A stretch of DNA of 56,292 bases from Elusimicrobiota bacterium (GTDB taxonomy: Bacteria > Elusimicrobiota > Elusimicrobia > Elusimicrobiales > UBA9959). Below are positions 4,620-16,190 of this stretch, piece after piece. Position numbers and translations under genes: made by a program. The notes beneath the pieces are model-generated. The model searched no databases. It had not been told where the DNA came from and saw only the letters and a list, made by a program, of their open reading frames with translations. Within the stretch, counting starts at the first letter, position 1; each line of letters starts with the position of its first letter. The stretch is from positions 1 through 56,292 of the forward strand of contig WOVA01000006.1 of the NCBI GenBank assembly GCA_009773155.1. Direction: 5' to 3'.

Positions 4620-5027
4620 TCACAGAAACTTGTTCAACCGTGGAACAAAAAACTTAATTATTTTCTCCATCGCGTTGATGGCGGAAATCGCGTCCTTTAC
4701 CGAAGCAGCCGCGCCGGGATATCTTATTTCCACGGCATATTGACTAAGTCTTCGTAAACAGGGAAGAAGCCGCCTCATGTTTAAGTTACAATTCCTGCGG
4801 ATTGCAAGTTCCGCGCTAAGAAGATCGTGTGTTCTTGGAACGGGTTGTCCGGAAACAGCCAGCATCGCTTTCATGTATTTTTCCGCACACTGCTGGGCGT
4901 GAAAACAAGCTATCTCCGCCTGATCTTCGCCATGCCTGGCGTCTTGCAAAGCCCTCAATGCCGCCATCTGGTCGGCTTTAGCCTTTCTTATCCATTCTAT
5001 GGCAAAATCAGGACTCATAGAGAACAA
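4620..5027 (-). CDS. HEPN domain protein (toxin-like half of a HEPN/MNT pair)
   Basis: A 135-residue, mainly helical protein of the HEPN family (PF05168 type). It shows CFHAQQCAEKYMKA at 41-54, PRTHDLL at 64-70 and RYPG at 102-105, all hallmarks of this branch. HEPN partners of minimal nucleotidyltransferases often act as RNases that the MNT neutralises by modification. The classical R-x4-6-H nuclease motif is not obvious here; the only nearby Arg-His combination is RTHD, so nuclease activity is uncertain. The gene overlaps the upstream MNT gene by up to 20 nt (11 nt if the second Met is used), the usual MNT-then-HEPN order. It sits just upstream of the deoxyhypusine-synthase-like gene. Confidence 0.82.
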   Translation of the reverse strand: MFSMSPDFAIEWIRKAKADQMAALRALQDARHGEDQAEIACFHAQQCAEKYMKAMLAVSGQPVPRTHDLLSAELAIRRNCNLNMRRLLPCLRRLSQYAVEIRYPGAAASVKDAISAINAMEKIIKFFVPRLNKFL

Positions 5028-5322
5028 GACCTTTATTGATTATGTCCATAAAGAAAGTGTCCTTAAGGTTTACGCGCTGCGCTATTTCCTTTTGATTGCG
5101 GATAAGGATATCCAGCGGGTAAAGATGGTCGCCTACGGCTTTATCAACCAAATCGTATCTTCTGGTTTTCTCCCGCGGCTTATCCAGCACGACAAGAATA
5201 TCTATATCGCTGTCGGGGCCAGGCTTGCCGTGTGCATAAGAGCCGAATAAAATAATTTTCTCCGGTCTGGCTTTCGCGGCTATCCGGCCTGCCAGATATT
5301 TTATCCAGACGGAAGCCGGCAT
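5008..5322 (-). CDS. Minimal nucleotidyltransferase (MNT antitoxin-like)
   Basis: A 104-residue nucleotidyltransferase of the MNT type. The signature GSYAHGKPGPDSDID (27-41) carries the G-S motif and the first two metal-binding aspartates (39 and 41); the third acidic residue is likely Asp71 in PLDILI. MNTs of this size usually pair with HEPN proteins, as here, and modify or inhibit them. The frame is open to 5520, but the upstream part overlaps the P1 terminator and has no family similarity, so the start at 5322 (MPASVWIKYLAGRI) is preferred. No strong ribosome site is visible. Confidence 0.82.
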   Translation of the reverse strand: MPASVWIKYLAGRIAAKARPEKIILFGSYAHGKPGPDSDIDILVVLDKPREKTRRYDLVDKAVGDHLYPLDILIRNQKEIAQRVNLKDTFFMDIINKGLVLYES

Positions 5323-5367
5323 ATGCCGGTGGTTATGTGAGCGATTGTCTGATTGTTTGGTTGTTTT

Positions 5368-5412
5368 CACTATTAGTCCCCGTCCCAACACCTGCCTGCC
5401 CCGATAATAGTG
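5368..5412. promoter_or_regulatory. Inverted repeat in the leader of the MNT-HEPN unit
   Basis: CACTATTA (5368-5375) and TAATAGTG (5405-5412) are exact reverse complements 29 bases apart, between the MNT promoter-like site and its start codon. GTCCCC blocks lie inside and beside it, resembling the ends of the palindromic repeats elsewhere in the window. It could be an autoregulatory operator or the remnant of a mobile palindrome. Confidence 0.35.
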
Positions 5413-5445
5413 TGCTGTCCCCATTAAGCATTTGGCCGTACCCAC

Positions 5446-5475
5446 ATTATACGAATTTGAGATGCCGGCCCACAA
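5446..5475 (-). promoter_or_regulatory. Candidate promoter of the MNT-HEPN unit
   Basis: On the minus strand TTGTGG is followed after 18 bases by a perfect TATAAT, just downstream of the P1 terminator and about 125 bases before the MNT start codon. Confidence 0.4.
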
Positions 5476-5479
5476 AAGC

Positions 5480-5508
5480 AAAAAACCCCGCCCCTTGCGG
5501 GGGCGGGG
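5480..5508 (-). terminator. Rho-independent terminator after P1
   Basis: Nine-base perfect arms CCCCGCCCC and GGGGCGGGG with a 5-base loop are followed on the minus strand by six T. It begins 18 bases after the P1 stop codon and ends the six-gene P region. Confidence 0.88.
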
Positions 5509-5526
5509 CCCAACCGCCATCCGTAG

Positions 5527-8500
5527 TTATTTGCCGTCCGCCAGGCTACCGCAGATGCCGCCGCTGTAGGCGGTGCGCCGCCACTCGCCGTAAGGAACTA
5601 TCTGCCCCACGGCCGAAGTCATGGTTATGCCGGCGGAAACACCGGATCGCTGAACTCCCAGGTTGAAGCCGGTGGATTCGGTGTACATAGCAGGCTTGTC
5701 CACCTTGAGCGAGGTAGATGTCACGCGCCACTTGTCGGCGGAGTTCCTCTCGCATAGCAACTCGAAGTCCACGTTGTAGTTGCTCTGGGCGCTACCGCGG
5801 TAGCCCTTGTGGCTGGCGCCGTCGTTGGTCCTGGCGGCCACCATCCGCACTATATCCCCGCCGGAAGCGGTGTTGCCGGCCGAATTATAGCCCAGCTTGT
5901 AGGTGGCCGTGAAGAACTTCTTTTTGCAGTCCGCCTTGGCGCTGGACAGGGTATGGAAGTTTACAAGGGAGAGGGCGCCTTCGAAGAAACCGCCTATCTC
6001 GTTCTCGCAGATCTCATTCCTTCTGGCGGTTGACAGATTCTGGCCGCGGTACTTGCTGTATATCCTATCGTTCGCCCGGCCTATCACGCCCGAGCCGGAG
6101 TATATGCCGGCGAACGTGGAAGGACTGATGGGCGTCCAAGTCTGGATGAGATAGAAAGAACTGACGGTGCCGCAACCTTCCCTGTTCTCCCAGCAGTTGG
6201 CGGACTCCGGCGGCTTGACTACCGGCGGCTTGGGCGGTTTCGGCGGCTTAGGCGGCTTGGGCGTCTCGGGCGGCTTGGGCGCCTGCTCCGGCGGCTTGGG
6301 CGCCTGCTCCGGCGGCTTGGGCGCCTGCTCCGGCGGCTTGGGCGCCTGCTCCGGCGGCTTGGGTGCCTGCTCCGGCGGCTTGGCGGGCGCGGGTACGTGG
6401 GGCTTGAGCTGATCTTCCCACCCCTTTATCTTACTGGTGACATCGACCGCGATTCCGTCCAGCACCGGGGCGCCCTTCATGTTGTCTATGTCCCACGGCA
6501 GCTCCAGATGCGCGCGCATACCGACGGAGATTATCTCCTGGGGCAGTTCGCGCTCGGCATTGGCCGCGGGATCGTAACCGGGGACATTGATCTTATGCCT
6601 GGGGCTGATCTCGCGCCAAAGCGCGCTCTCCACTTCCTTGGTGCGCTTATCGTCAATTTCTCTGGAGTTCCAGAACTTCCCGGTATCCATACCGCGGAAG
6701 GATACCATGTCTTCAGTATAAGCCTGGGCCGCCTGGCCCTCCCGGGCTCCGGGCGACATCCGGAAGTCTTTCGGGAAGTCAACTAAGTTGGTCAGGGTCA
6801 TTCCGGGGGCCGGTGCAGGGGCCGGGGGCGGGTCCGCGCGGGGAGTGAAGTTTGTCTCCTTGCCCGTCAGTTCCTTGAATATCCCAACAATCTTACGCTC
6901 ATCACCGGGAGTCAGGCTACTGCTGAGCCAGCCGACCTTATCGATAAACTCCTTGAGCTCCCCTCCCTTGCCGTCCTCGCCCACCAGCTTCGCGCCCCTG
7001 TTATAGGCTTCCACGGAGACGCCATTGATGGCGACGGACTTTTGTTCCACCTTGCCGATCTGGGCGGTGTAGAGCTTGGCCGCCGCATCGTGATATTTGA
7101 CGCGCATGTCGGCGGAAGAAACCGCGGATCTGGCCTGAGCGACCTCAATCCTCAACGACTTGATGATCTCGGTCAACTTCAGGTCCTCTATTATGCCGGC
7201 CTGGCCGTCGGCAGTCTGGCCGGGCTTATTGGCCCCGGCGAGGCCATCGAGCGTCTTGGTGAATCCATCCAACTGTTCGTTTGCCTTAGCGACCTGTGTC
7301 TTGGCTGTCGCGATGTTTTTCTGGTAGGCGCCCAACGGCTCCCGCAAGGCGGCGGCTTTGTTGATGCAGGGCTGAGCGTGCCTGATGTAGTAGCTCTTGG
7401 AGGCGGCCATCATACCGGCCGCCACCTTGACGGTGTTCTTGAGCAGGTCCTTCGCACTCTCCGCGGCCTGGCCGTTTATAACTCCATCGGCCATATCCTT
7501 GAGAGCGGGGTCGAGTTCGTTCTTCAGGAATTGCACGGTGTCCGGCTGCAGGTTGGTGGACGGGATGGGAGAATTGACGCCCGGCGTAGCGCCGCTCGGG
7601 GTGGAGCCGGTGCCGCCGGTGCCGCTGCCGAAGAATCCCGTCGGCAGTGCACCGCAGGGGCATGCCCTGTTGGCATTCCAGGATTTATGGACCTCCGGAT
7701 CGCTGGAGGGGGGGTAATCGGTCGTCCTGTTATCTTCACGGCAGTGTTTCTTATCCGGGTCCACCATCCGCCAGCATATATACGCAATCGGGGCGCTGCC
7801 TCTCTGGCCCGTCAGATCGTTGGTAAGGGACTCCGCGAATTTGGTCAGGCTGGTGCCCACGCCGGAAAGGACGGCCTCTATGAGTTTCTTGGGGATCTCG
7901 TACTTCTTGTACATCTCCCACTCGAGCGCCTTCTCCGCGCGCTTGCGGTTGAGCATCTCCGCCAGGGATTCCTTGGGAGAATGCGATTTCTGGTCGCGGG
8001 CGCTGCTATTGGAGGGGGACTTGGTCTTGTCGCCGTCCTTGCCGCCGCCCATGCCGCCGTCGCCGGCGCCCGCGTTGACGGAAGCGGCCGCGGCCTGGTC
8101 GAGGCCCTTGACGGCGCTGCCGGTGGTGAAGTTGTCGGCCGCGGCGCCGGCCTGCGCGCGCAGCTTCTCAAAAGCCCCGCGCGAAGCGCTGTTGGGGGTC
8201 ATAGCCACGCCTTTGTAGCCGGCCGCGGCTATGGGGCCGACCATGGAGCGGGAAGCGGCCTTTGAGGAGGCTTTCTTCGCGTCTTCACTTATCTTACCTC
8301 CGCCCGGGCCGCCGGAAGTCCTGCTGCCCTCGCCGCCGCCGAAGAAGGAGCTCATGCCACGCAGGCCGGACTGCATCTTGGGAATGACGGTAGGCGCGCC
8401 GCCCGATTTTACGGCCGCGGAGAAGGCCTCGCGCCCGGCGTCGCGCACGGTATCGCGCAGACTGCTGCCGGGCGGCGCGGAAGGCATCGGCGGGGGCGCC

Positions 8501-8910
8501 GGCTTGGCCGCTCCCAGTATCAGCGAGAGCGGGTCGCGGGCGCTGAGCGGCACTATCACCTCGCCGCTGCCGTCGGGCGAACCCTGGCTGAGCCCGTGGA
8601 TCCCTGGCTCGTAGATGGAGGAACCGTCGCCAATCCCGCGGGAGCCGAAGCCCGCGGTGAGCGTATTGTCCATCGGGGGGCGCGACATCATGTATTCGGC
8701 GACTGGCGCCATGATCAGCGCGCTCAGGCCCAGGACGACCAGGCCGAGGTCGCGGCGGGAAAGGCCCTTTATCCTCTCCATGATGCCGCCGGCGGCCTTC
8801 GAGAAAGCGGGGGCTTTGCCGAAGGTGCTGGATTTGCGGAACGAGGGACCCTGACGGCCCAGCACGGGGGGTACCGTGTTGCGTTCCTCTTTATCATTAT
8901 TAAAGCTCAT
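5527..8910 (-). CDS. P1: very large membrane-anchored Gly/Ser/Pro-rich protein, unknown family
   Basis: A 1127-residue protein, the last of six related genes. It has a basic N-terminal stub, one membrane segment (about 54-71, LGLVVLGLSALIMAPVAE) and a long presumably periplasmic part: a low-complexity Gly/Ser/Ala region with VIPKMQ (175-180), a helical section rich in Ala, Lys and Gln (roughly 500-640), a Pro-rich hinge of five KPPEQAP repeats followed by PKPP repeats (about 843-897), and a C-terminal Cys-containing domain (CWENREGC ... GGICGSLADGK). The IPKM motif and layout recur in P4 and P5. The start at 8910 follows GGAGG by a few bases; the frame is open to 8952. I recognise no known domain. 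A strong terminator follows. Confidence 0.8.
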   Translation of the reverse strand: MSFNNDKEERNTVPPVLGRQGPSFRKSSTFGKAPAFSKAAGGIMERIKGLSRRDLGLVVLGLSALIMAPVAEYMMSRPPMDNTLTAGFGSRGIGDGSSIYEPGIHGLSQGSPDGSGEVIVPLSARDPLSLILGAAKPAPPPMPSAPPGSSLRDTVRDAGREAFSAAVKSGGAPTVIPKMQSGLRGMSSFFGGGEGSRTSGGPGGGKISEDAKKASSKAASRSMVGPIAAAGYKGVAMTPNSASRGAFEKLRAQAGAAADNFTTGSAVKGLDQAAAASVNAGAGDGGMGGGKDGDKTKSPSNSSARDQKSHSPKESLAEMLNRKRAEKALEWEMYKKYEIPKKLIEAVLSGVGTSLTKFAESLTNDLTGQRGSAPIAYICWRMVDPDKKHCREDNRTTDYPPSSDPEVHKSWNANRACPCGALPTGFFGSGTGGTGSTPSGATPGVNSPIPSTNLQPDTVQFLKNELDPALKDMADGVINGQAAESAKDLLKNTVKVAAGMMAASKSYYIRHAQPCINKAAALREPLGAYQKNIATAKTQVAKANEQLDGFTKTLDGLAGANKPGQTADGQAGIIEDLKLTEIIKSLRIEVAQARSAVSSADMRVKYHDAAAKLYTAQIGKVEQKSVAINGVSVEAYNRGAKLVGEDGKGGELKEFIDKVGWLSSSLTPGDERKIVGIFKELTGKETNFTPRADPPPAPAPAPGMTLTNLVDFPKDFRMSPGAREGQAAQAYTEDMVSFRGMDTGKFWNSREIDDKRTKEVESALWREISPRHKINVPGYDPAANAERELPQEIISVGMRAHLELPWDIDNMKGAPVLDGIAVDVTSKIKGWEDQLKPHVPAPAKPPEQAPKPPEQAPKPPEQAPKPPEQAPKPPEQAPKPPETPKPPKPPKPPKPPVVKPPESANCWENREGCGTVSSFYLIQTWTPISPSTFAGIYSGSGVIGRANDRIYSKYRGQNLSTARRNEICENEIGGFFEGALSLVNFHTLSSAKADCKKKFFTATYKLGYNSAGNTASGGDIVRMVAARTNDGASHKGYRGSAQSNYNVDFELLCERNSADKWRVTSTSLKVDKPAMYTESTGFNLGVQRSGVSAGITMTSAVGQIVPYGEWRRTAYSGGICGSLADGK
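6272..6383. repeat. 21-bp tandem repeat encoding KPPEQAP units
   Basis: About five near-identical copies of a 21-bp unit (CCTGCTCCGGCGGCTTGGGCG on the plus strand, its exact phase arbitrary) lie head to tail in P1, each encoding seven residues. Shorter PKPP-coding repeats continue to about 6222. Copy number is likely variable between strains through slippage, always in frame. Confidence 0.85.
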
Positions 8911-9000
8911 ATATCCTCCGAAAGGGCGCCTTTTGCCGAATATGAAAAACACTTCGCAGGGTATGCATGACCTTCTGGATCAGCCGCCACTGCTCGCCAT

Positions 9001-9029
9001 ACTCTACCTAATAAAGGCCGTTTCTCCAA
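9001..9029 (-). promoter_or_regulatory. Possible internal promoter for P1
   Basis: On the minus strand TTGGAG is followed after 17 bases by TAGAGT, about 90 bases before the P1 start. Each box matches the consensus at four of six positions, so it is a weak candidate. Confidence 0.3.
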
Positions 9030-9101
9030 GTGTCATTCGTCCTATACGCGCCTGGGCCCTATGGCCCTGGCAGAATCAAAAACCCGGCCGCCTGCGGTAC
9101 T

Positions 9102-9126
9102 GGGACACCATGCCGCATGGTGTCCC
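9102..9126. repeat. Family A palindrome, copy 3 (between P2 and P1)
   Basis: GGGACACCATG and CATGGTGTCCC around CCG. The outermost G/C pair of the 27-bp form is lost, leaving 25 bp. It is intergenic. Confidence 0.93.
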
Positions 9127-9268
9127 TCCCTGAGGCCGCGTAGGGAGCGCATCCCGCCGCCAGTGGCGGACGGGTCCGCAGCGCTCTCGCCGCCAGCCTC
9201 CAGCAAGGGCCGGGCCGAGACCAACTTCACATTACCGAGACTCACAAAAAATCCCACAGCGGGCCGCA

Positions 9269-10849
9269 CTACTTCTCTCCGCCATCCGAACCGGCGCCCG
9301 CGACCGTCTTCAGGGCGCTGGCTATGGCCTGCTGGGCCAGGGTGGCGCCGAGATAGAAAACGGCAAGCATACCGGCGAGTATACCCAGGAGCATACCGAA
9401 AATACCCGGCACGAGCTGGGAGATAAGCAAGGAAGCGCCGGCCACTATCAGGGCTATGCCTATCGGGCCCAGCAGGAACGCTCCCACGATTATAAGGAGT
9501 ATGGCGAGGATGATGCCTATCCAGCACTTCAACTTGCTGCATTTCTTGATCTTCGCCTTGTTGTGGTTGTTGCAGTTCACGGGCGTGTCCACGGTCTGGC
9601 AGGCGGCGGAAATAAGCGAGTTGCGGGCGTTGTTGTCCATGCACAGCGCTTTTATCTGCTCGATCTTGCCGTTCCACCTGTTCACGGCGCCGTGGTTGCA
9701 GCATTTGGGAGGCTTGCCCATGCTCTTGGCTATCTTGTCCATCTTGTCCGAGTTCTCCGATATGTGCGTGGTCTGCTCGCTCGCCACCCTGGAACACTCC
9801 TTGGCCAGGTCTGTGAGTTCGGCGGCCCCCTGCATAATATCGGAGGTCCAGGAATTATCCGGGACCGGCGGCGGCGTGGCGTCCGTCTGTATCTCCTGCA
9901 GCCCCACCGCGTTGCCGTCATAGGTGGCGCCCACGTGGGAGGCCTGGTACTCGGAAGAGGCCGTCGGGTTTTTGTAGGCCGCGCCGGTCATGGTGAAGGT
10001 TTCCGCCAGGCGGAACATGGCGCCCTGTTTATTGATCCGGGAACCGGGATCTCCTCCGCCCTGCCTGTACCCGGCGTTGCGCCAGGAAAAACCTGAGACC
10101 CGGCCCATACGCTTGCCGGTAACGGGCTTGGGATTGCCGGCTACCGGCACCCTGCTGGCGGCCTGGTTCATGGCGCCGCCGTACATGCCGTCCGCGGCGC
10201 CCCCTATCCCGGGGCCTTTACCCAGGATGGTGCGGTTCATGAACGGCGAGCCGGAGCCGAGGGCGCCGCCAAAGGAGCCCGCCCCGCCGCCGCTCATGTA
10301 GCCGAAACCCGAACCGTCGCCCGGGCCTCCGGCGCCGGCCAGGTAATCCTCGAAATCGACCGCGTCCGCGCCCGCGCCGCGCGCCTTCTCCTCGTCGCTG
10401 ACCGCGCCGGCCACCTCGCCCGGCTTCCTCTTGCCGGCCTTGCCCGGCTCGCCCGCGCGGTAATAGTCCTCTCCGCCGCGCAGCATGGCCAGCGAAGAAC
10501 CCGCGCCGGCGCCGGTCATAGTGCCGGACATGCCGCGCAGGAAACTGTTCCAGACCGAGTCCTGGTCGCTATCGTGCATCGCGCGATTTATAGCAGCCCT
10601 AAGGATATCGTTAGAATAAGAAGAATCAAGGGCGGTGATGACGCTGTGCAGGCCCGTCGCCCGTAGGATATAACTGACGGGCGCGAACTGGACTAGGCGG
10701 TAGAGCATATCCTGCGAAACGACGAAAGGAGCCGAGGCGCCCAGCACCATGACCAGGAGTACCACGTACCTGGCCCTGCCCCTGAAGAGCAGGAGCAGGG
10801 CGGCCAGCAGAGATTTCCGTTTGTGCTTCTCCATGAATTTGCTGCCCAT
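9269..10849 (-). CDS. P2: membrane protein with Gly-rich middle and Cys-rich, multi-pass C terminus, unknown family
   Basis: A 526-residue protein with a basic N terminus, a first membrane segment at about 28-45 (YVVLLVMVLGASAPFVV), a long Gly/Ser/Ala-rich extracytoplasmic region (about 105-270), a Cys-rich stretch near 360-445 (CSRV, KCCNH, ALC, AACQ, VNCNN, KKCSKLKCW) and two or three hydrophobic segments near the C terminus (from IGIILAILLIIVGAFLLG on). The N-terminal layout matches P1 and P3-P6, whereas the Cys cluster is unique to P2. AGGGG precedes the ATG at 10849. A family A palindrome lies on either side of the gene. No known family recognised; the C-terminal helices loosely resemble TrbC/VirB2-type hydrophobic hairpins, but I see no diagnostic motif. 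Confidence 0.78.
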   Translation of the reverse strand: MGSKFMEKHKRKSLLAALLLLFRGRARYVVLLVMVLGASAPFVVSQDMLYRLVQFAPVSYILRATGLHSVITALDSSYSNDILRAAINRAMHDSDQDSVWNSFLRGMSGTMTGAGAGSSLAMLRGGEDYYRAGEPGKAGKRKPGEVAGAVSDEEKARGAGADAVDFEDYLAGAGGPGDGSGFGYMSGGGAGSFGGALGSGSPFMNRTILGKGPGIGGAADGMYGGAMNQAASRVPVAGNPKPVTGKRMGRVSGFSWRNAGYRQGGGDPGSRINKQGAMFRLAETFTMTGAAYKNPTASSEYQASHVGATYDGNAVGLQEIQTDATPPPVPDNSWTSDIMQGAAELTDLAKECSRVASEQTTHISENSDKMDKIAKSMGKPPKCCNHGAVNRWNGKIEQIKALCMDNNARNSLISAACQTVDTPVNCNNHNKAKIKKCSKLKCWIGIILAILLIIVGAFLLGPIGIALIVAGASLLISQLVPGIFGMLLGILAGMLAVFYLGATLAQQAIASALKTVAGAGSDGGEK

Positions 10850-10868
10850 AAAAATATCCCCTTAAACA

Positions 10869-10895
10869 GGGGACACCATGCGGCATGGTGTCCCC
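10869..10895. repeat. Family A palindrome, copy 4 (between P3 and P2)
   Basis: Perfect 27-bp copy with loop CGG, filling nearly all of the 59-base gap between the P3 stop and the P2 start and ending about 20 bases before the P2 start codon. A transcript across it could form a 12-bp hairpin beside the P2 ribosome site. Confidence 0.95.
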
Positions 10896-10908
10896 CACTC
10901 TCCGTCCG

Positions 10909-12354
10909 TCAGAACCCGTTCATCATCGAACCCAGGAGGCTGACGATGCCAGCTATGGCAGACACCCACAACTGCGCAGTGTTGTTAGAGGCCTTGCCGG
11001 CAAACGCTAATACCGCAGCCGCTATCGCGCAACCGCCCCCTATCACATATATCGTCCCCATAAGCGTCTGGCCGTGTGTGCTCATTATCTGGATGCCGTT
11101 CAACACCGCCATAACGCCAAGTAGCAGGGCGACACCAGCCAGAATATACCCGATAACTTTCAGGTAGAAAGTGGCGGGCGTGTTACCTATGGAAATAAGA
11201 TAACTGGCTATCGCCGACAGGACAATCGACAGCATTATATACATCATCGCCTGGGAAGCCAGGTCGGCCCAGGGGCTTATGTCGTCGGCACCGGGATCCG
11301 TGTAATTATATTCGCCGGGGGTGTCGTAATCGCCGCTGCCGCTGCCGGAGTTTGTGTTGTCCATCGAAGGAGACGTCACTATGCCCGCGCCGCCATCGCC
11401 GACTCCGAGGCCGGAGCCGCCGGACACGTCGCCTTCGCCGGTAGCGCCTTCCCAGGCCTTGTCCTGCGTCGAACGCATACTGTCGATGTTGGTGGCGCCG
11501 TAGCTCTTCTGCACGTCGCGCACGGCATTGGCTTGGTCGAACGATCCCTTGGCCTTCTTAGCCGCGGAAGAGGATTTGTCTCCGCGCTTGACCGAGACAC
11601 GGGAAGCCATCGCGGTGATTTTGCCTTTCTTGGGGCTCTGCATCGGCGCGAATTTACCCGCGCCCATATCGGTAAAGCCGACCTTGGGTCCGAAAGCGCC
11701 CTGCCCGGTCTTCATCCCGCCCATCATCATCTTGCCCGAACCGCCGCCGGGGAGCGAGGTGGAAAGCCCCGTGGCGCTGGCGCCCTGCAGCCTGCCCAGC
11801 ACGGCCTGTGGGTCGCTCATGTTGCTATTGTCGGAGGCCTGCTCCGCGTCGGGTGCCGCTTCCTCTTCCGCGGCCGCTTCCGCGGCCCCGGCGGCCTTGG
11901 CTTTGGCGGCCTCGCCGTCGAAGTCTATCGCCCCCTTGTTCCTGTCGGCGAACATATCCAGCGAGGAGCCCGGCGCGGCCTGGCGCCGGAGTATCGCCGG
12001 CACGTATTCGGCCGACTGGGACTTGTCGGAACTGAAGGAGGAGCTCTGCGAGCCTACCCCGCCCTGGTTGCTCACGTAGAGCCCGGCGCCCAGGCCGACG
12101 GCCACTATGGCCGCCACGCCGAGCACCTTGGTGGTGAGCAGCCCGCCGGCCGCGCCGAACTTGGCGGCGCCGCCGAACTTAGCGGCGCCCAGCGCGCGCC
12201 CGGCATTAGCCCCTACGCCCGCCGCCGGCCCGGCGCCGGCGGAACCCATGGAACCGCGCGAGCCTATGCCCAGGCGGCCCTGGAGCCAGGGGAGGAAAGC
12301 CTTCCTCTCCTTCTTCTCCTTGAAGCCGAGCTCCGGCAGATCCTTGTCTTCCAT
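10909..12354 (-). CDS. P3: membrane-anchored Gly/Ala-rich protein with four C-terminal membrane segments, unknown family
   Basis: A 481-residue protein: charged N-terminal stub, Ala/Gly stretch, first membrane segment about 72-93, extracytoplasmic low-complexity region with SSLDMF (to residue 135) and a Gly/Met-rich part, then about four membrane segments from residue 375 to the end. The C-terminal block LNGxxxMxxxGQTxMG (from residue 418) recurs in P4 (from residue 402), and LDMF recurs in P4 at 117-120. These shared motifs make P3 and P4 diverged paralogues. GGGGAGGA precedes the ATG. No known domain recognised. Confidence 0.8.
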   Translation of the reverse strand: MEDKDLPELGFKEKKERKAFLPWLQGRLGIGSRGSMGSAGAGPAAGVGANAGRALGAAKFGGAAKFGAAGGLLTTKVLGVAAIVAVGLGAGLYVSNQGGVGSQSSSFSSDKSQSAEYVPAILRRQAAPGSSLDMFADRNKGAIDFDGEAAKAKAAGAAEAAAEEEAAPDAEQASDNSNMSDPQAVLGRLQGASATGLSTSLPGGGSGKMMMGGMKTGQGAFGPKVGFTDMGAGKFAPMQSPKKGKITAMASRVSVKRGDKSSSAAKKAKGSFDQANAVRDVQKSYGATNIDSMRSTQDKAWEGATGEGDVSGGSGLGVGDGGAGIVTSPSMDNTNSGSGSGDYDTPGEYNYTDPGADDISPWADLASQAMMYIMLSIVLSAIASYLISIGNTPATFYLKVIGYILAGVALLLGVMAVLNGIQIMSTHGQTLMGTIYVIGGGCAIAAAVLAFAGKASNNTAQLWVSAIAGIVSLLGSMMNGF

Positions 12355-12383
12355 AAATTCCTCCCCTTACTTATAACTCCGAA

Positions 12384-13892
12384 TCAAATCCCTTTCATTA
12401 TGGAACCTATATCGAAAGCGCTGCTGAGCCCGCCGGCGTCCTTGAAGAAGCCGCTGGTGGATTCACCCATGATGGGCTTCTGGTTGTACACCTGCTTACC
12501 GTCCTCCATCACATTCTTACCGTCGACAACCTTGGGACTGTCGAGATCATCGACCGAAGCCTCTCCCATCGAGCCCATGGCGTCCAGTATCACCTGTATG
12601 GCTTTCATGGCCATCATCACGCCGAGCATGGCATACATGCCGCCCATCCATGTCTGACCGAACTCGTTCATCAGCGTGAGGCCATTGAGGATAAGTTTTA
12701 CGGCGAACACAAGGGCAACGACTGCCGCGGCTATCGCCAGCGCCGCCACTATCAGCTTGGGCCAGGCGGTCAGTTTTTTGGCGATCCCCGCCAGGACCAT
12801 GCCTATCACCAGCGCGATGCCGCCGGCGAGGATATTATCCATCGCCTCGTCGAGCGTCTCCTGCCAGGGATCCACCACCTCAGGGTCCGGCACCTTGGGA
12901 GGTTCGCTCTCGTTCATGTTAAGGTTGGGGTCGTTGGCCTTGAGCGAATCGCCCTTCGAAACACCGGCCCCTCCCAACCCGGCCCCGGTCTCGGCGGCGC
13001 CCACGTCGCCGCTGCCGGTGGTCTCGCCCGCGAAAGCCTCGGTGGCCCCGGTATGGGCCCCGGCGTCGGAGGCGGAGTAAGCGGCCTTGGCGCCCATCTT
13101 GCCGGCGTACTTGGCCTGGCCGAAAGCGCCTTTTTTGTTGAAGTTGGGAACGGTATACTTGGGCGAGTTCGACAGTCTGGCGGCCGCGCCCTTGCGCATA
13201 TCCGAAGCCTGCCCCGCGGGGGCGCGGTAGACGGGCGAGAACTGCTGACCTATGCCGCCCGAAAGCCCGCCGGAGGTCTGCATCTTGGGCATGGACGTGC
13301 CGCTGCCGGCACCGCCCTTGGAGCCGAAGCCCAGGGAAGCCGCTAGTTTGCCTTTACCGGAACCGGAGCCGGAGCCTGCCCCTGACTGCCCCGCGCCGGA
13401 TCCCGCTTCGGGAGCGGAAACATCGGCCGAGGCGCTGGCGCCCGCGCCCGCTTCGGAGCCCTCTCCGCCTTCGGCCGCCGCATCCCCGCCGCCTTCACCG
13501 AAACCTATGCCGTCCTTCCTGGCCTGCTCCTTGAACATATCCAGGGTCGAAGGCTCCACGGAAGCGGCGCTGTTGACGCGCTGGCGCTCCATGTTGGCGC
13601 TGGCCGCCTGCTCTTCCTGGTAAGCGTTCTGGAAGAGGGAAGGGGAATAGACGGGCCTGGAAGTCGGGCCCATGAAGTTGTAGACCACGCCCACGCCGGC
13701 AGCTATCGTGGCGCCGCCGAGGACCACCCCGAGGAGGCCCGCCTTGCTGGCGAAAAGCCCTCCGGCGCCGCCCGCTCCTGCGGCGCCGCCCAGGCCGGAG
13801 GCCGCGCCCGAAGCGCCGCCCCCCCCGCCGAAAAGGCGCGCTACCGCGGCCAGAAGGCCTTCTTTCTTCCTCTCTTCGTTATTGGCGTTCAT
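12384..13892 (-). CDS. P4: membrane-anchored Gly/Ser-rich protein, paralogue of P3 and P5
   Basis: A 502-residue protein: basic stub, Gly/Ala stretch, membrane segment about 48-70, extracytoplasmic Gly/Ser/Ala-rich region with LDMF (117-120) and MPKM (201-204), the block NDPNLN...PPKVPDPEVVDPW, then three hydrophobic segments with the LNG...GQT...MG motif (from 402) and a polar tail of about 60 residues. The NDPxLN/PExVVD block also occurs in P5, while the membrane motif links it to P3, so P4 bridges the set. GGAGG precedes the ATG; gaps of 29 and 40 bases to its neighbours suggest one transcript. No known family recognised. Confidence 0.8.
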   Translation of the reverse strand: MNANNEERKKEGLLAAVARLFGGGGGASGAASGLGGAAGAGGAGGLFASKAGLLGVVLGGATIAAGVGVVYNFMGPTSRPVYSPSLFQNAYQEEQAASANMERQRVNSAASVEPSTLDMFKEQARKDGIGFGEGGGDAAAEGGEGSEAGAGASASADVSAPEAGSGAGQSGAGSGSGSGKGKLAASLGFGSKGGAGSGTSMPKMQTSGGLSGGIGQQFSPVYRAPAGQASDMRKGAAARLSNSPKYTVPNFNKKGAFGQAKYAGKMGAKAAYSASDAGAHTGATEAFAGETTGSGDVGAAETGAGLGGAGVSKGDSLKANDPNLNMNESEPPKVPDPEVVDPWQETLDEAMDNILAGGIALVIGMVLAGIAKKLTAWPKLIVAALAIAAAVVALVFAVKLILNGLTLMNEFGQTWMGGMYAMLGVMMAMKAIQVILDAMGSMGEASVDDLDSPKVVDGKNVMEDGKQVYNQKPIMGESTSGFFKDAGGLSSAFDIGSIMKGI

Positions 13893-13932
13893 AAATCCTC
13901 CGCTTCCCTGTTTTTAAACAAAACGATTCGCC

Positions 13933-14901
13933 TTACAGTTTAATCTTCCCGTCCGGCCCGCCCGTCCCGGAGGCGCCCTTGAACAAGGCGCCGAACATCG
14001 GCCCCAGAACCTGCGAGATTATCATCTGGATTATCATCTGTTTGTACATCTCGTCGTTATCGACGACCTTGGGCTCGGGAATTTCCGGCGGCTTGAATTT
14101 TTTGCTGTTAAGGCTGGGGTCGTTCTTCTTGAGGTCCGAATCCACCTGGCCCAGTTCAAGGCCGGCCACCGCGGACTGCTCCTCTATCTCGGTGGTAAGG
14201 TCGGGGTTAGACGAAGCGGCCGATCTCACGAACGCGCTGGAGGACCCGCCGCGCGACTGGTCCACTTTCATACCGGCCGAAGAAAGACTTTTTTTCTCCA
14301 CGGAAGACAGCGCGGCCAGAAGGCCCGAAGGCTTATCCTTCCCTATCGACTTCTTGGCGTCCTGCAGCGGGGACGGCGCCAGTTCGGCGGCCGCGTTGCC
14401 GGCGCCGAAGAATTTCTTGTGGGAGCTTCCCGCCGTCATCGAGTTCCCGCCGCTCCCCGAAAGAGAGCCCGGAGCGCTCATCTTGGGGATGGAGGAACGC
14501 CCCGCGCCGGCCGAAGGCGCGCTGACCCCGGCCGAAGCCGAGGCGGAAGCGGAAACGGAGACCGCGTCATCGGCCGGGCCGGCCCCGGCCTCGCCGTCCG
14601 AAAGCTCTCCTATGCCGGAACTGTACAGCGACGAATCGGCCAGGTCCCCCGCTGTGGCGGGATTGTCGGACATCATGCCGCTGAGGGCGTAGCCGGGGGC
14701 GGAACCCTCGGCCGGTATCTCCAGCGAATTGAGGTCCACGGCCTTGGATTTGAAAGGGTTGCCGGAAGGCACGGAGGTGTCGAACGAGGACTGTTGCATG
14801 AGAGGCAGGGAGAGCCAGGCGAAGACTATCACCACCGCTATTACGCCCCCCACCGCGTACTGGGTATTCTTTGATTTCTTCCCCGAATTTATTTTCATCA
14901 T
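13933..14901 (-). CDS. P5: single-pass Ser/Gly-rich membrane protein, paralogue of P4
   Basis: A 322-residue protein with one N-terminal membrane segment (about 15-35, YAVGGVIAVVIVFAWLSLPL), a Ser/Ala/Gly-rich extracytoplasmic region with IPKM (138-141), the block NDPSLN...PPEIPEPKVVD seen in P4, and a short hydrophobic C-terminal stretch (MIIQMIISQVLGPMFGALF). It lacks the multi-pass domain of P3/P4. The start is one of two adjacent ATGs (14901 or 14898) behind GGGG; the frame is open to 14955. A near-consensus promoter lies about 95 bases upstream, so P5 probably heads the P5-P1 transcript. Confidence 0.78.
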   Translation of the reverse strand: MMKINSGKKSKNTQYAVGGVIAVVIVFAWLSLPLMQQSSFDTSVPSGNPFKSKAVDLNSLEIPAEGSAPGYALSGMMSDNPATAGDLADSSLYSSGIGELSDGEAGAGPADDAVSVSASASASAGVSAPSAGAGRSSIPKMSAPGSLSGSGGNSMTAGSSHKKFFGAGNAAAELAPSPLQDAKKSIGKDKPSGLLAALSSVEKKSLSSAGMKVDQSRGGSSSAFVRSAASSNPDLTTEIEEQSAVAGLELGQVDSDLKKNDPSLNSKKFKPPEIPEPKVVDNDEMYKQMIIQMIISQVLGPMFGALFKGASGTGGPDGKIKL

Positions 14902-14993
14902 AACGCCCCGCTTTTCCCCGTATGGCCTAAAAAAACACTCACTTTCCCTTGACACACCTTCCGCGATGTTCAGGGTAAAGTTTATTCCTCTAT

Positions 14994-15022
14994 GTTATAG
15001 CAGGCGTTCGTTGACTTGTCAA
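14994..15022 (-). promoter_or_regulatory. Sigma-70-type promoter ahead of P5
   Basis: On the minus strand a perfect TTGACA is followed by a 17-base spacer and TATAAC, in the 149-base gap between P6 and P5. It is the best promoter match seen in the window and likely drives P5-P4-P3-P2-P1. Confidence 0.75.
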
Positions 15023-15050
15023 GACCCACAAAGGGCCCTCAAAGGAGCGA

Positions 15051-16190
15051 TTAGAAACAGGAGGACTCGTATCCCCCGCCCTCGAGCTGATAAACCGCGC
15101 AGTCGTTCTTTATATCTGAGGTGCCGTGTTCTCCACGGAAAGTGATGTGGTAATAATCCTGACCCGGCCTCACTCCGTCGGGGCAGCCGGAGGAGCACTT
15201 CTTGGACGTGTAGTCGTACTCCTTGTCGATATCCAGCTCGTCCTTGAGGATAAGGTTGTCTTTTATGTACTGTTCCACGTCGGGGGGAAGCGGCTTCGAA
15301 GAATTACCCGAATCCCCGCCTGCGCCGCCTCCGCCGAGGAGGGCCTGGGTTATCTGGTCCGTCATGCTCTTCTTCAGGGCGTCCTTTGCCTTATCGGCCG
15401 CCGTCTCCGCCTCTTTTACCGCCTTGGGCTTGCCCACGTCCGGGACTGACAGCGTGGTAGGATCCCCTATCTTCAGACTGCCGACCTCCCCGGTCTCGAT
15501 ATGGTCCAGCGAGGTGGCGGCCTGGTTATAGGAGGACATCTGCCCGCCGCCTCCGGCGCCCGTGTGCTTCATGCCGAAGCCCTGGTCCCACTTGGACTTC
15601 GCGGCAAGCGCGGAACCGGTATTTGTGGCCGCGGCAAGATGGCCGCGCGAGGCCATAAGGGCGTTCATGGTCTTGCCGCCCTTGGCCGCGGAACTTCCGG
15701 AGCCGGAGCCGGGCACGCCGGCGAGCTTAAGGCCGTCCGAATCGCCGGAACCTGAAAAAGAAGAGAACGATTTGCTGCCGCCGCCGCCCAGGGCCCCCGC
15801 GCCCGACAGCGAAGCCCCCAGCCTGGAAGAGGACCCGCTTCCGCCGCCGTAAGAGCTTCGCTTGGAACCCGGCGCGGCGGAGGCCGCGGCCGGGGCGCCG
15901 GCCGCCGCTCCCGCCGCCAGCCCGCCGGAATTAAGCGCCTCTTCTATCTTAAGAGCTTTTTCGTCCCTGGCCTTGCCTTCGGGCGTCTCATTGTCCACGA
16001 AGCCGAAATATTTAAGTATCGGAAGCGTGGCGCGGCCGGCGATGCCGGAACCGAAGCTGCGGAACTTGACGTCCTGCATATCCTGCAGGCCGTTCCAGAT
16101 AAGGAAACCAAAAACACCTCCCCCCATTAAAAGGAAGGTGACGACCATGACTATAAGGGATTTTTTTCCCCTGTCGGCATTATCGGCCAT
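15051..16190 (-). CDS. P6: single-pass Gly/Ser-rich protein with Cys-rich C-terminal domain, unknown family
   Basis: A 379-residue protein, first of the six in transcription order. It has a basic stub, one membrane segment (about 11-33, SLIVMVVTFLLMGGGVFGFL), an Ala/Gly/Ser-rich extracytoplasmic linker with a SLSGAGALGGG block resembling those in P4/P5, SLKIGDPTTLSVPD (compare the NDP blocks of P4/P5), and a compact C-terminal domain with four Cys (KKCSSGC, NDCAVY, SSCF) that could form two disulfides. The frame opens at a TTG at 16223, but ATG 16190 (MADNADRGKK) gives the compact N terminus seen in its relatives. A strong promoter separates it from P5. No known family recognised. Confidence 0.78.
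   Translation of the reverse strand: MADNADRGKKSLIVMVVTFLLMGGGVFGFLIWNGLQDMQDVKFRSFGSGIAGRATLPILKYFGFVDNETPEGKARDEKALKIEEALNSGGLAAGAAAGAPAAASAAPGSKRSSYGGGSGSSSRLGASLSGAGALGGGGSKSFSSFSGSGDSDGLKLAGVPGSGSGSSAAKGGKTMNALMASRGHLAAATNTGSALAAKSKWDQGFGMKHTGAGGGGQMSSYNQAATSLDHIETGEVGSLKIGDPTTLSVPDVGKPKAVKEAETAADKAKDALKKSMTDQITQALLGGGGAGGDSGNSSKPLPPDVEQYIKDNLILKDELDIDKEYDYTSKKCSSGCPDGVRPGQDYYHITFRGEHGTSDIKNDCAVYQLEGGGYESSCF

What the first reader, a model, noticed from the sequence alone, without database searches (positions are those of the whole stretch)
5527..16190. Six-gene cluster of unrecognised, low-complexity membrane-anchored proteins: candidate new envelope system
Six consecutive minus-strand genes (P6 to P1) cover over 10 kb and match no family I know. 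Each has a basic cytoplasmic stub, one N-terminal membrane segment and a long Gly/Ser/Ala-rich extracytoplasmic region. P2, P3 and P4 add multi-pass C-terminal domains, while P1, P2 and P6 have Cys-bearing extracytoplasmic parts. Shared motifs (IPKM or MPKM, LDMF, NDPxLN) suggest one apparatus built by duplication. The anchored scaffolds, three multi-pass proteins and one giant protein with a Pro-rich hinge would suit a cell-envelope-spanning or secretion-like machine. The function is inference.
Basis: partly seen in the sequence, partly recalled or inferred. Interest (0 to 1): 0.87.

Follow-up and report, generated by a model that had tools for sequence, protein, structure and literature searches.

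The report
Envelope module linked to Tad pilus
Six neighbouring genes of unknown type in an uncultivated Elusimicrobiales bacterium prove to be a real module of membrane-anchored proteins conserved in its family; in related families the same genes sit directly beside genes of a Tad (type IVc) pilus, so they are most likely a lineage-specific envelope part of that pilus machine, with its own promoter and a new RNA leader.

Summary
Six minus-strand genes (5527-16190) encode N-terminally anchored, Gly/Ser/Ala-rich proteins, three with hydrophobic C-terminal domains; no Pfam or NCBIfam model matches above its cut-off. Their order is constant across the window's family, with dN/dS below 1. The giant protein is found in 23 of 25 family genomes searched. 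Divergent P2/P1 orthologs occur in further families of the phylum.

In seven f2/f14/f15 genomes read upstream, P5-P4-P3-P2-P1 lies directly downstream of TadE/TadG-like genes. In three of these the adjoining DNA carries the Tad ATPase, two T2SSF platforms and a TPR gene. The window's own genome has a complete Tad cluster on another contig, with a P6/P5 paralog next to its TadE-like gene. I conclude this is a lineage-specific accessory module of the Elusimicrobiota Tad pilus rather than a free-standing new system. Linkage is shown; the physical role is inferred.

P3-P6 form a duplication chain; P1 and P2 are not demonstrably part of it. P1 has a conserved stalk, hypervariable body and exchangeable C-terminal domains. 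P5-P1 has a family-conserved promoter and a covarying RNA hairpin unknown to Rfam.

The parts
15051..16190 (-). P6: stub + one TM + Gly/Ser-rich region shared with P5 + short Cys-bearing C-terminal domain
   Evidence: ORF; TM and Cys; 13 orthologs; profile match to P5 E 2e-8
14992..15022 (-). Promoter-like element TTGACA-N17-TATAAC with an inverted repeat (TTGAC-AA-GTCAA) over the -35, in front of P5
   Evidence: Near-invariant before P5 in most family genomes read; exact match unique in window; in the whole genome the other five matches have 1-3 mismatches
14933..14984 (-). Covarying RNA hairpin in the P5 leader
   Evidence: 10 of 18 pairs with changes on both sides, 92% of cells paired versus 30-55% in slid controls; no Rfam match; single copy in own genome
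13933..14901 (-). P5: stub + TM + Ser/Ala-rich region, amphipathic C-terminus
   Evidence: profile match to P4 E 6e-10
12384..13892 (-). P4: stub + TM + Gly/Ala-rich region + hydrophobic multi-pass C-terminal domain
10909..12354 (-). P3: paralog of P4, same architecture
   Evidence: P3-P4 profile E 4e-43
9269..10849 (-). P2: stub + TM + low-complexity region + conserved Cys-bearing helical region (332-432, pLDDT mostly above 90) + hydrophobic C-terminus
   Evidence: found in 84 of 341 phylum genomes
5527..8910 (-). P1: stub + TM + conserved stalk (57-310) + variable helical body (465-850) + Pro-rich hinge + exchangeable C-terminal domain
5483..5511 (-). Intrinsic-terminator-like hairpin just after P1 (likely operon end)
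   Evidence: 12-pair stem followed by a T run

Best explanation
The genes encode a lineage-specific, inner-membrane-anchored envelope module that works with the Elusimicrobiota Tad (type IVc) pilus machine. Proposed mechanism: P2-P6 sit in the inner membrane by N-terminal helices and, through long flexible Gly/Ser-rich regions with short conserved helices, form a periplasmic scaffold near the pilus basal body; P1 is anchored in it and exposes a rapidly diversifying helical body with an exchangeable C-terminal domain that contacts the outside or passing cargo. P5-P1 is expressed from a dedicated promoter through an RNA hairpin that may gate expression. Shown: the genes, their conservation, adjacency to TadE/TadG-like genes and Tad core genes in other families, a P6/P5 paralog in the window genome's own Tad cluster, P1's conserved/variable partition, the leader's covariation. 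Inferred: physical association with the pilus, the scaffold role, surface exposure of P1, regulation by the hairpin.
For: Seven of seven f2/f14/f15 genomes with upstream DNA read (G112, G184, G186, G190, G192, G200, G203) have TadE- and TadG-like genes upstream of P5/P4 on the same strand. G112, G192 and G200 also have the Tad ATPase, two T2SSF platform genes and a TPR gene in the same run; representatives confirmed by Pfam. The window genome's Tad cluster (contig C85) has a MinD-T2SSE fusion, T2SSF x2, Secretin, RcpC/CpaB, TadE and a class III signal pilin, and directly after its TadE-like gene a paralog of P6 (E 5e-11) and P5 (E 2e-6). P2 co-occurs with the Tad ATPase in 80 of 84 genomes versus 196 of 257 without P2 (Fisher p 4e-5; not corrected for phylogeny). 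Domain exchange at the P1 C-terminus, including two types within genus g12, fits a variable outer part.
Against: No P protein resembles a known Tad component by sequence and none has a prepilin-type E+5 motif, so gene context carries the argument. In the window's own family the operon is unlinked from the Tad cluster. Most f2 genomes have Tad without a detectable P2, so the pilus can do without the module or the module has diverged beyond detection. The structure models are only partly confident and gave no convincing PDB match.
Confidence: 0.6

Rival explanations
1. P1-P6 form a tip or minor-pilin-like complex of the Tad pilus itself, with P1 as the large variable tip protein, analogous to the KilLMN / TadEFG tips of Myxococcus.
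For: Adjacent to TadE/TadG-like genes; large protein with conserved N-terminal part and exchangeable C-terminal domain, the pattern described for KilN/TadG tips (PMC12075869).
Against: No prepilin G/A-x4-E motif in any of the 95 sequences scanned, while the genome's Flp, TadE and TadE-like proteins have it; separate TadE/TadG-like genes already exist; P2-P4 have multi-pass C-termini, unlike pilins.
Confidence: 0.2
2. A separate secretion- or adhesion-type envelope machine that only shares a chromosomal neighbourhood (and perhaps the assembly ATPase) with the Tad pilus.
For: In the window's family it is an independent operon with its own promoter and RNA leader; many genomes have Tad without P2; large proteins of no known family, most with signal-peptide-like starts, follow P1 in some f14/f15 genomes.
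Against: Adjacency to TadE/TadG-like genes recurs in three families; a P6/P5 paralog lies inside the Tad cluster of the window's genome; the operon has no recognisable ATPase of its own.
Confidence: 0.15
3. Ordinary low-complexity surface or wall-associated proteins without a common machine.
For: Gly/Ser/Ala-rich composition; dN/dS higher than in the neighbouring FprA gene.
Against: Constant order and co-conservation across genera, invariant residues in P1 and P2, conserved regulatory leader.
Confidence: 0.05

Closest known systems
Tad / Flp (type IVc) pilus system
   Same: Gene neighbourhood in other families: TadZ-TadA fusion, TadB/TadC, TPR protein, secretin, RcpC/CpaB, TadE, Flp-type pilin. 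Tad systems in Elusimicrobia were already reported (PMC6668835).
   Different: P1-P6 are not recognisable homologs of any Tad component and lack prepilin motifs; in the window's family they form a separate operon.
Myxococcus Kil system (Tad-like pilus with exchangeable tips, PMC12075869)
   Same: A Tad engine combined with large proteins whose C-terminal domains vary.
   Different: Kil tips are prepilin-like minor pilins; P1-P6 are TM-anchored with longer stubs, Gly/Ser-rich linkers and multi-pass C-termini. No evidence of predation here.
Type IV secretion (VirB10/VirB6-like) by architecture only
   Same: Single N-terminal TM plus Pro-rich stretch (P1); multi-pass proteins (P2-P4).
   Different: No profile match to T4SS families; resemblance from memory, not a test of membership.

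Membership tests
Tad / type IVc pilus system (whole system in this genome) | Tad-type ATPase with TadB/TadC, secretin, RcpC and Flp-type pilin present | tested here: met
   Contig C85: T2SSE + MinD, T2SSF x2, Secretin, RcpC, TadE, class III signal pilin
Tad / type IVc pilus system (P1-P6 as genetic partners) | Genes located in or beside tad loci | tested here: met
   7 of 7 f2/f14/f15 genomes with upstream DNA read; not linked in family f1
Tad / type IVc pilus system (P1-P6 as components) | Physical association with the pilus or its basal body | not testable with these tools
   Needs biochemistry or imaging
Tad pseudopilins / minor pilins (TadE/F/G) | Prepilin motif (G/A at -1, E at +5 before the hydrophobic helix) | tested here: not met
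   0 of 95 P1-P6 sequences; Flp, TadE and TadE-like controls positive, TadG-like control negative
Tad pseudopilins / minor pilins (TadE/F/G) | Match to TadE or related Pfam/NCBIfam models | tested here: not met
Kil-type pilus tip complex | Large tip protein with variable C-terminal module | tested here: inconclusive
   P1 N-part 58% mean identity, body and C-term 16-19%, two C-terminal domain types; location at a tip not testable
Type IV secretion system | Homologs of VirB core proteins among P1-P6 | tested here: not met
   No match above cut-off
Known RNA family (leader of P5) | Match to an Rfam model | tested here: not met
   Nothing at gathering threshold; best chance-level hit E 4.6

The most novel reading that the evidence does not exclude
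A new class of envelope-spanning machine confined to Elusimicrobiota in which a Tad ATPase/platform drives a non-pilin scaffold (P2-P6) that presents a hypervariable, domain-swapping giant protein (P1) to other cells, under control of a new cis-regulatory RNA.
Probability: 0.2. Interest if true: 0.85.

Novelty: new variant of a known kind. Interest (0 to 1): 0.6.

Why it matters
Tad pili are usually described by a short standard parts list. This module suggests that a large group of mostly uncultivated bacteria couples the standard Tad engine to a dedicated set of anchored proteins that no family database covers, one with a hypervariable body and exchangeable end domain. It gives a defined gene set to test, a likely surface-variable protein, and a new candidate regulatory RNA.

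Tried and rejected
Pfam and NCBIfam scans of the six proteins and Pfam scans of P1-P4 orthologs: only sub-threshold or single-member chance hits (EspA, DUFs, coiled-coil families). PDB sequence search: P2 nothing, P1 only generic coiled coils. Fold search of the P2 and P1 models: no convincing match; trypanosome haptoglobin-haemoglobin receptor hits to P1 have TM-scores near 0.1-0.2 and reflect long helices. Prepilin hypothesis: motif absent. Homology of all six proteins: rejected for P1, not convincing for P2. A regulon shared with the Tad cluster through promoter or hairpin: not supported. Homologs outside Elusimicrobiota: scan of one genome per species found 44 loci, all from Elusimicrobiota or unnamed bacterium MAGs, but that scan sees only fairly close relatives; a wider P2 profile was too weakly conserved for it. 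No paper found in the held library describes these proteins.

Full report
Observation. Six minus-strand genes lie at 5527-16190. No Pfam or NCBIfam model matches any of them above its cut-off. Nonsynonymous divergence is well below synonymous divergence in two congeners (dN/dS about 0.14-0.55), though faster than in the neighbouring FprA gene.

Conservation. P3 was found in 19 and P1 in 23 of 41 relatives, all in the window's family f1 (P1 in 23 of 25 f1 genomes). The order P6-P5-P4-P3-P2-P1 is kept, between murC/FprA-type genes and dhs-omp-dnaX-recR, in f1 genomes with intact contigs; P6 was not detected in three of them. A P2 profile finds 84 of 341 genomes of the phylum, including members of families f2, f9, f13, f14 and f15. 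In the distant loci where DNA downstream of P2 was read, a P1 homolog or a large protein with a P1-like start follows in nearly all. The clear exception is L055, from a 1,643,562-base genome that I take to be Elusimicrobium minutum from its size (my knowledge, not a tool label); there P2 stands alone beside a TPR gene. A scan of one genome per species returned 44 loci, all titled Elusimicrobia/Elusimicrobiota or unnamed bacterium MAGs.

The link to a Tad pilus. Reading upstream of the operon in other families shows TadE- and TadG-like genes before P5/P4 on the same strand in seven of seven genomes. In G112 (f2), G192 and G200 (f15) the adjoining DNA continues into the Tad core; Pfam confirmed the representatives tested: a T2SSE ATPase (3e-62), T2SSF platform proteins (E 3e-15 to 3e-16), a TPR protein, and a sub-threshold TadE. 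The window's genome has the same Tad cluster on contig C85: a MinD-T2SSE fusion, two T2SSF proteins, a secretin, RcpC/CpaB, TadE and a pilin with class III signal. Directly after its TadE-like gene lies a 354-residue protein that matches the P6 profile (E 5e-11) and the P5 profile (2e-6). The Tad ATPase occurs in 276 of 341 genomes, and 80 of the 84 P2-bearing genomes have it (Fisher p 4e-5, uncorrected for phylogeny). Tad systems in Elusimicrobia were reported before (PMC6668835); I found no description of the P genes.

Anatomy. P3 and P4 are clear paralogs, P5 and P6 join them in a chain, P1 and P2 do not convincingly. P1 residues 57-310 average 58% pairwise identity in the family, residues 471-860 18%, and the C-terminal 210 residues 19%; the ends fall into at least two domain families with no detectable similarity to each other, and genus g12 has both. 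AlphaFold gives a confident helical body at about 465-850 and a mixed alpha/beta C-terminal domain of moderate confidence; the stalk is low-confidence. P2 has a confident helical region at 332-432 with conserved cysteines. Neither model has a convincing PDB match. No P protein has the E+5 prepilin motif.

Regulation. Before P5, the sequence TTGACAAGTCAA-N7-CTGCTATAACAT (TTGACA-N17-TATAAC) is nearly invariant across the family. Downstream a hairpin shows changes on both sides at 10 of 18 pairs, and 92% of cells pair against 30-55% in slid controls. A covariance model finds it once in the window's genome, in this leader, and in most f1 genomes searched, but in none of the f2 genomes searched. 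It has no Rfam match. Some genus g4 genomes carry a second copy before P2. Whether it acts as attenuator, protein-binding site or riboswitch is unknown.

Interpretation. The best reading is an Elusimicrobiota-specific envelope module that works with the Tad pilus: an anchored scaffold (P2-P6) plus a variable presenting protein (P1). Gene context is the main support; direct physical association is untested. The pattern of P1 recalls the exchangeable tips of the Kil pilus (PMC12075869), but membership in the tip/minor-pilin class fails the prepilin test.

Noticed in passing
window 1155, 1323, 9102, 10870, 31427, 34114 (start positions): A 25-bp palindrome GGGACACCATGCNGCATGGTGTCCC, 114 copies genome-wide against 0 for the reversed control. 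Some copies lie in frame inside genes (twice in the dnaX ORF 686-2473, once in the TadD-like gene L105:12715-14067), as with Rickettsia palindromic elements.
   Followed up: partly
window 4620-5520 (-): HEPN plus nucleotidyltransferase (MNT) gene pair, a typical toxin-antitoxin arrangement, between P1 and the deoxyhypusine synthase-like gene; in relatives P1 and that gene are close neighbours.
   Followed up: partly
window 14933-14984 (-): Covarying RNA hairpin leader of P5, apparently a new cis-regulatory RNA of this bacterial family.
   Followed up: yes
L064:14125-19998, L071:2-6646, L066:13308-17815: Large proteins, most with signal-peptide-like starts and no convincing Pfam match, follow P1 in some f14/f15 genomes; possible substrates or surface partners.
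   Followed up: partly
L106:4867-8010, L109:9324-12680, L110:7786-11214: A conserved 1050-1140-residue protein with a signal-peptide-like start next to the Tad pilin genes in several families.
   Followed up: no
L030:4573-6144: A second P3-like gene in genome G016, away from the operon.
   Followed up: no
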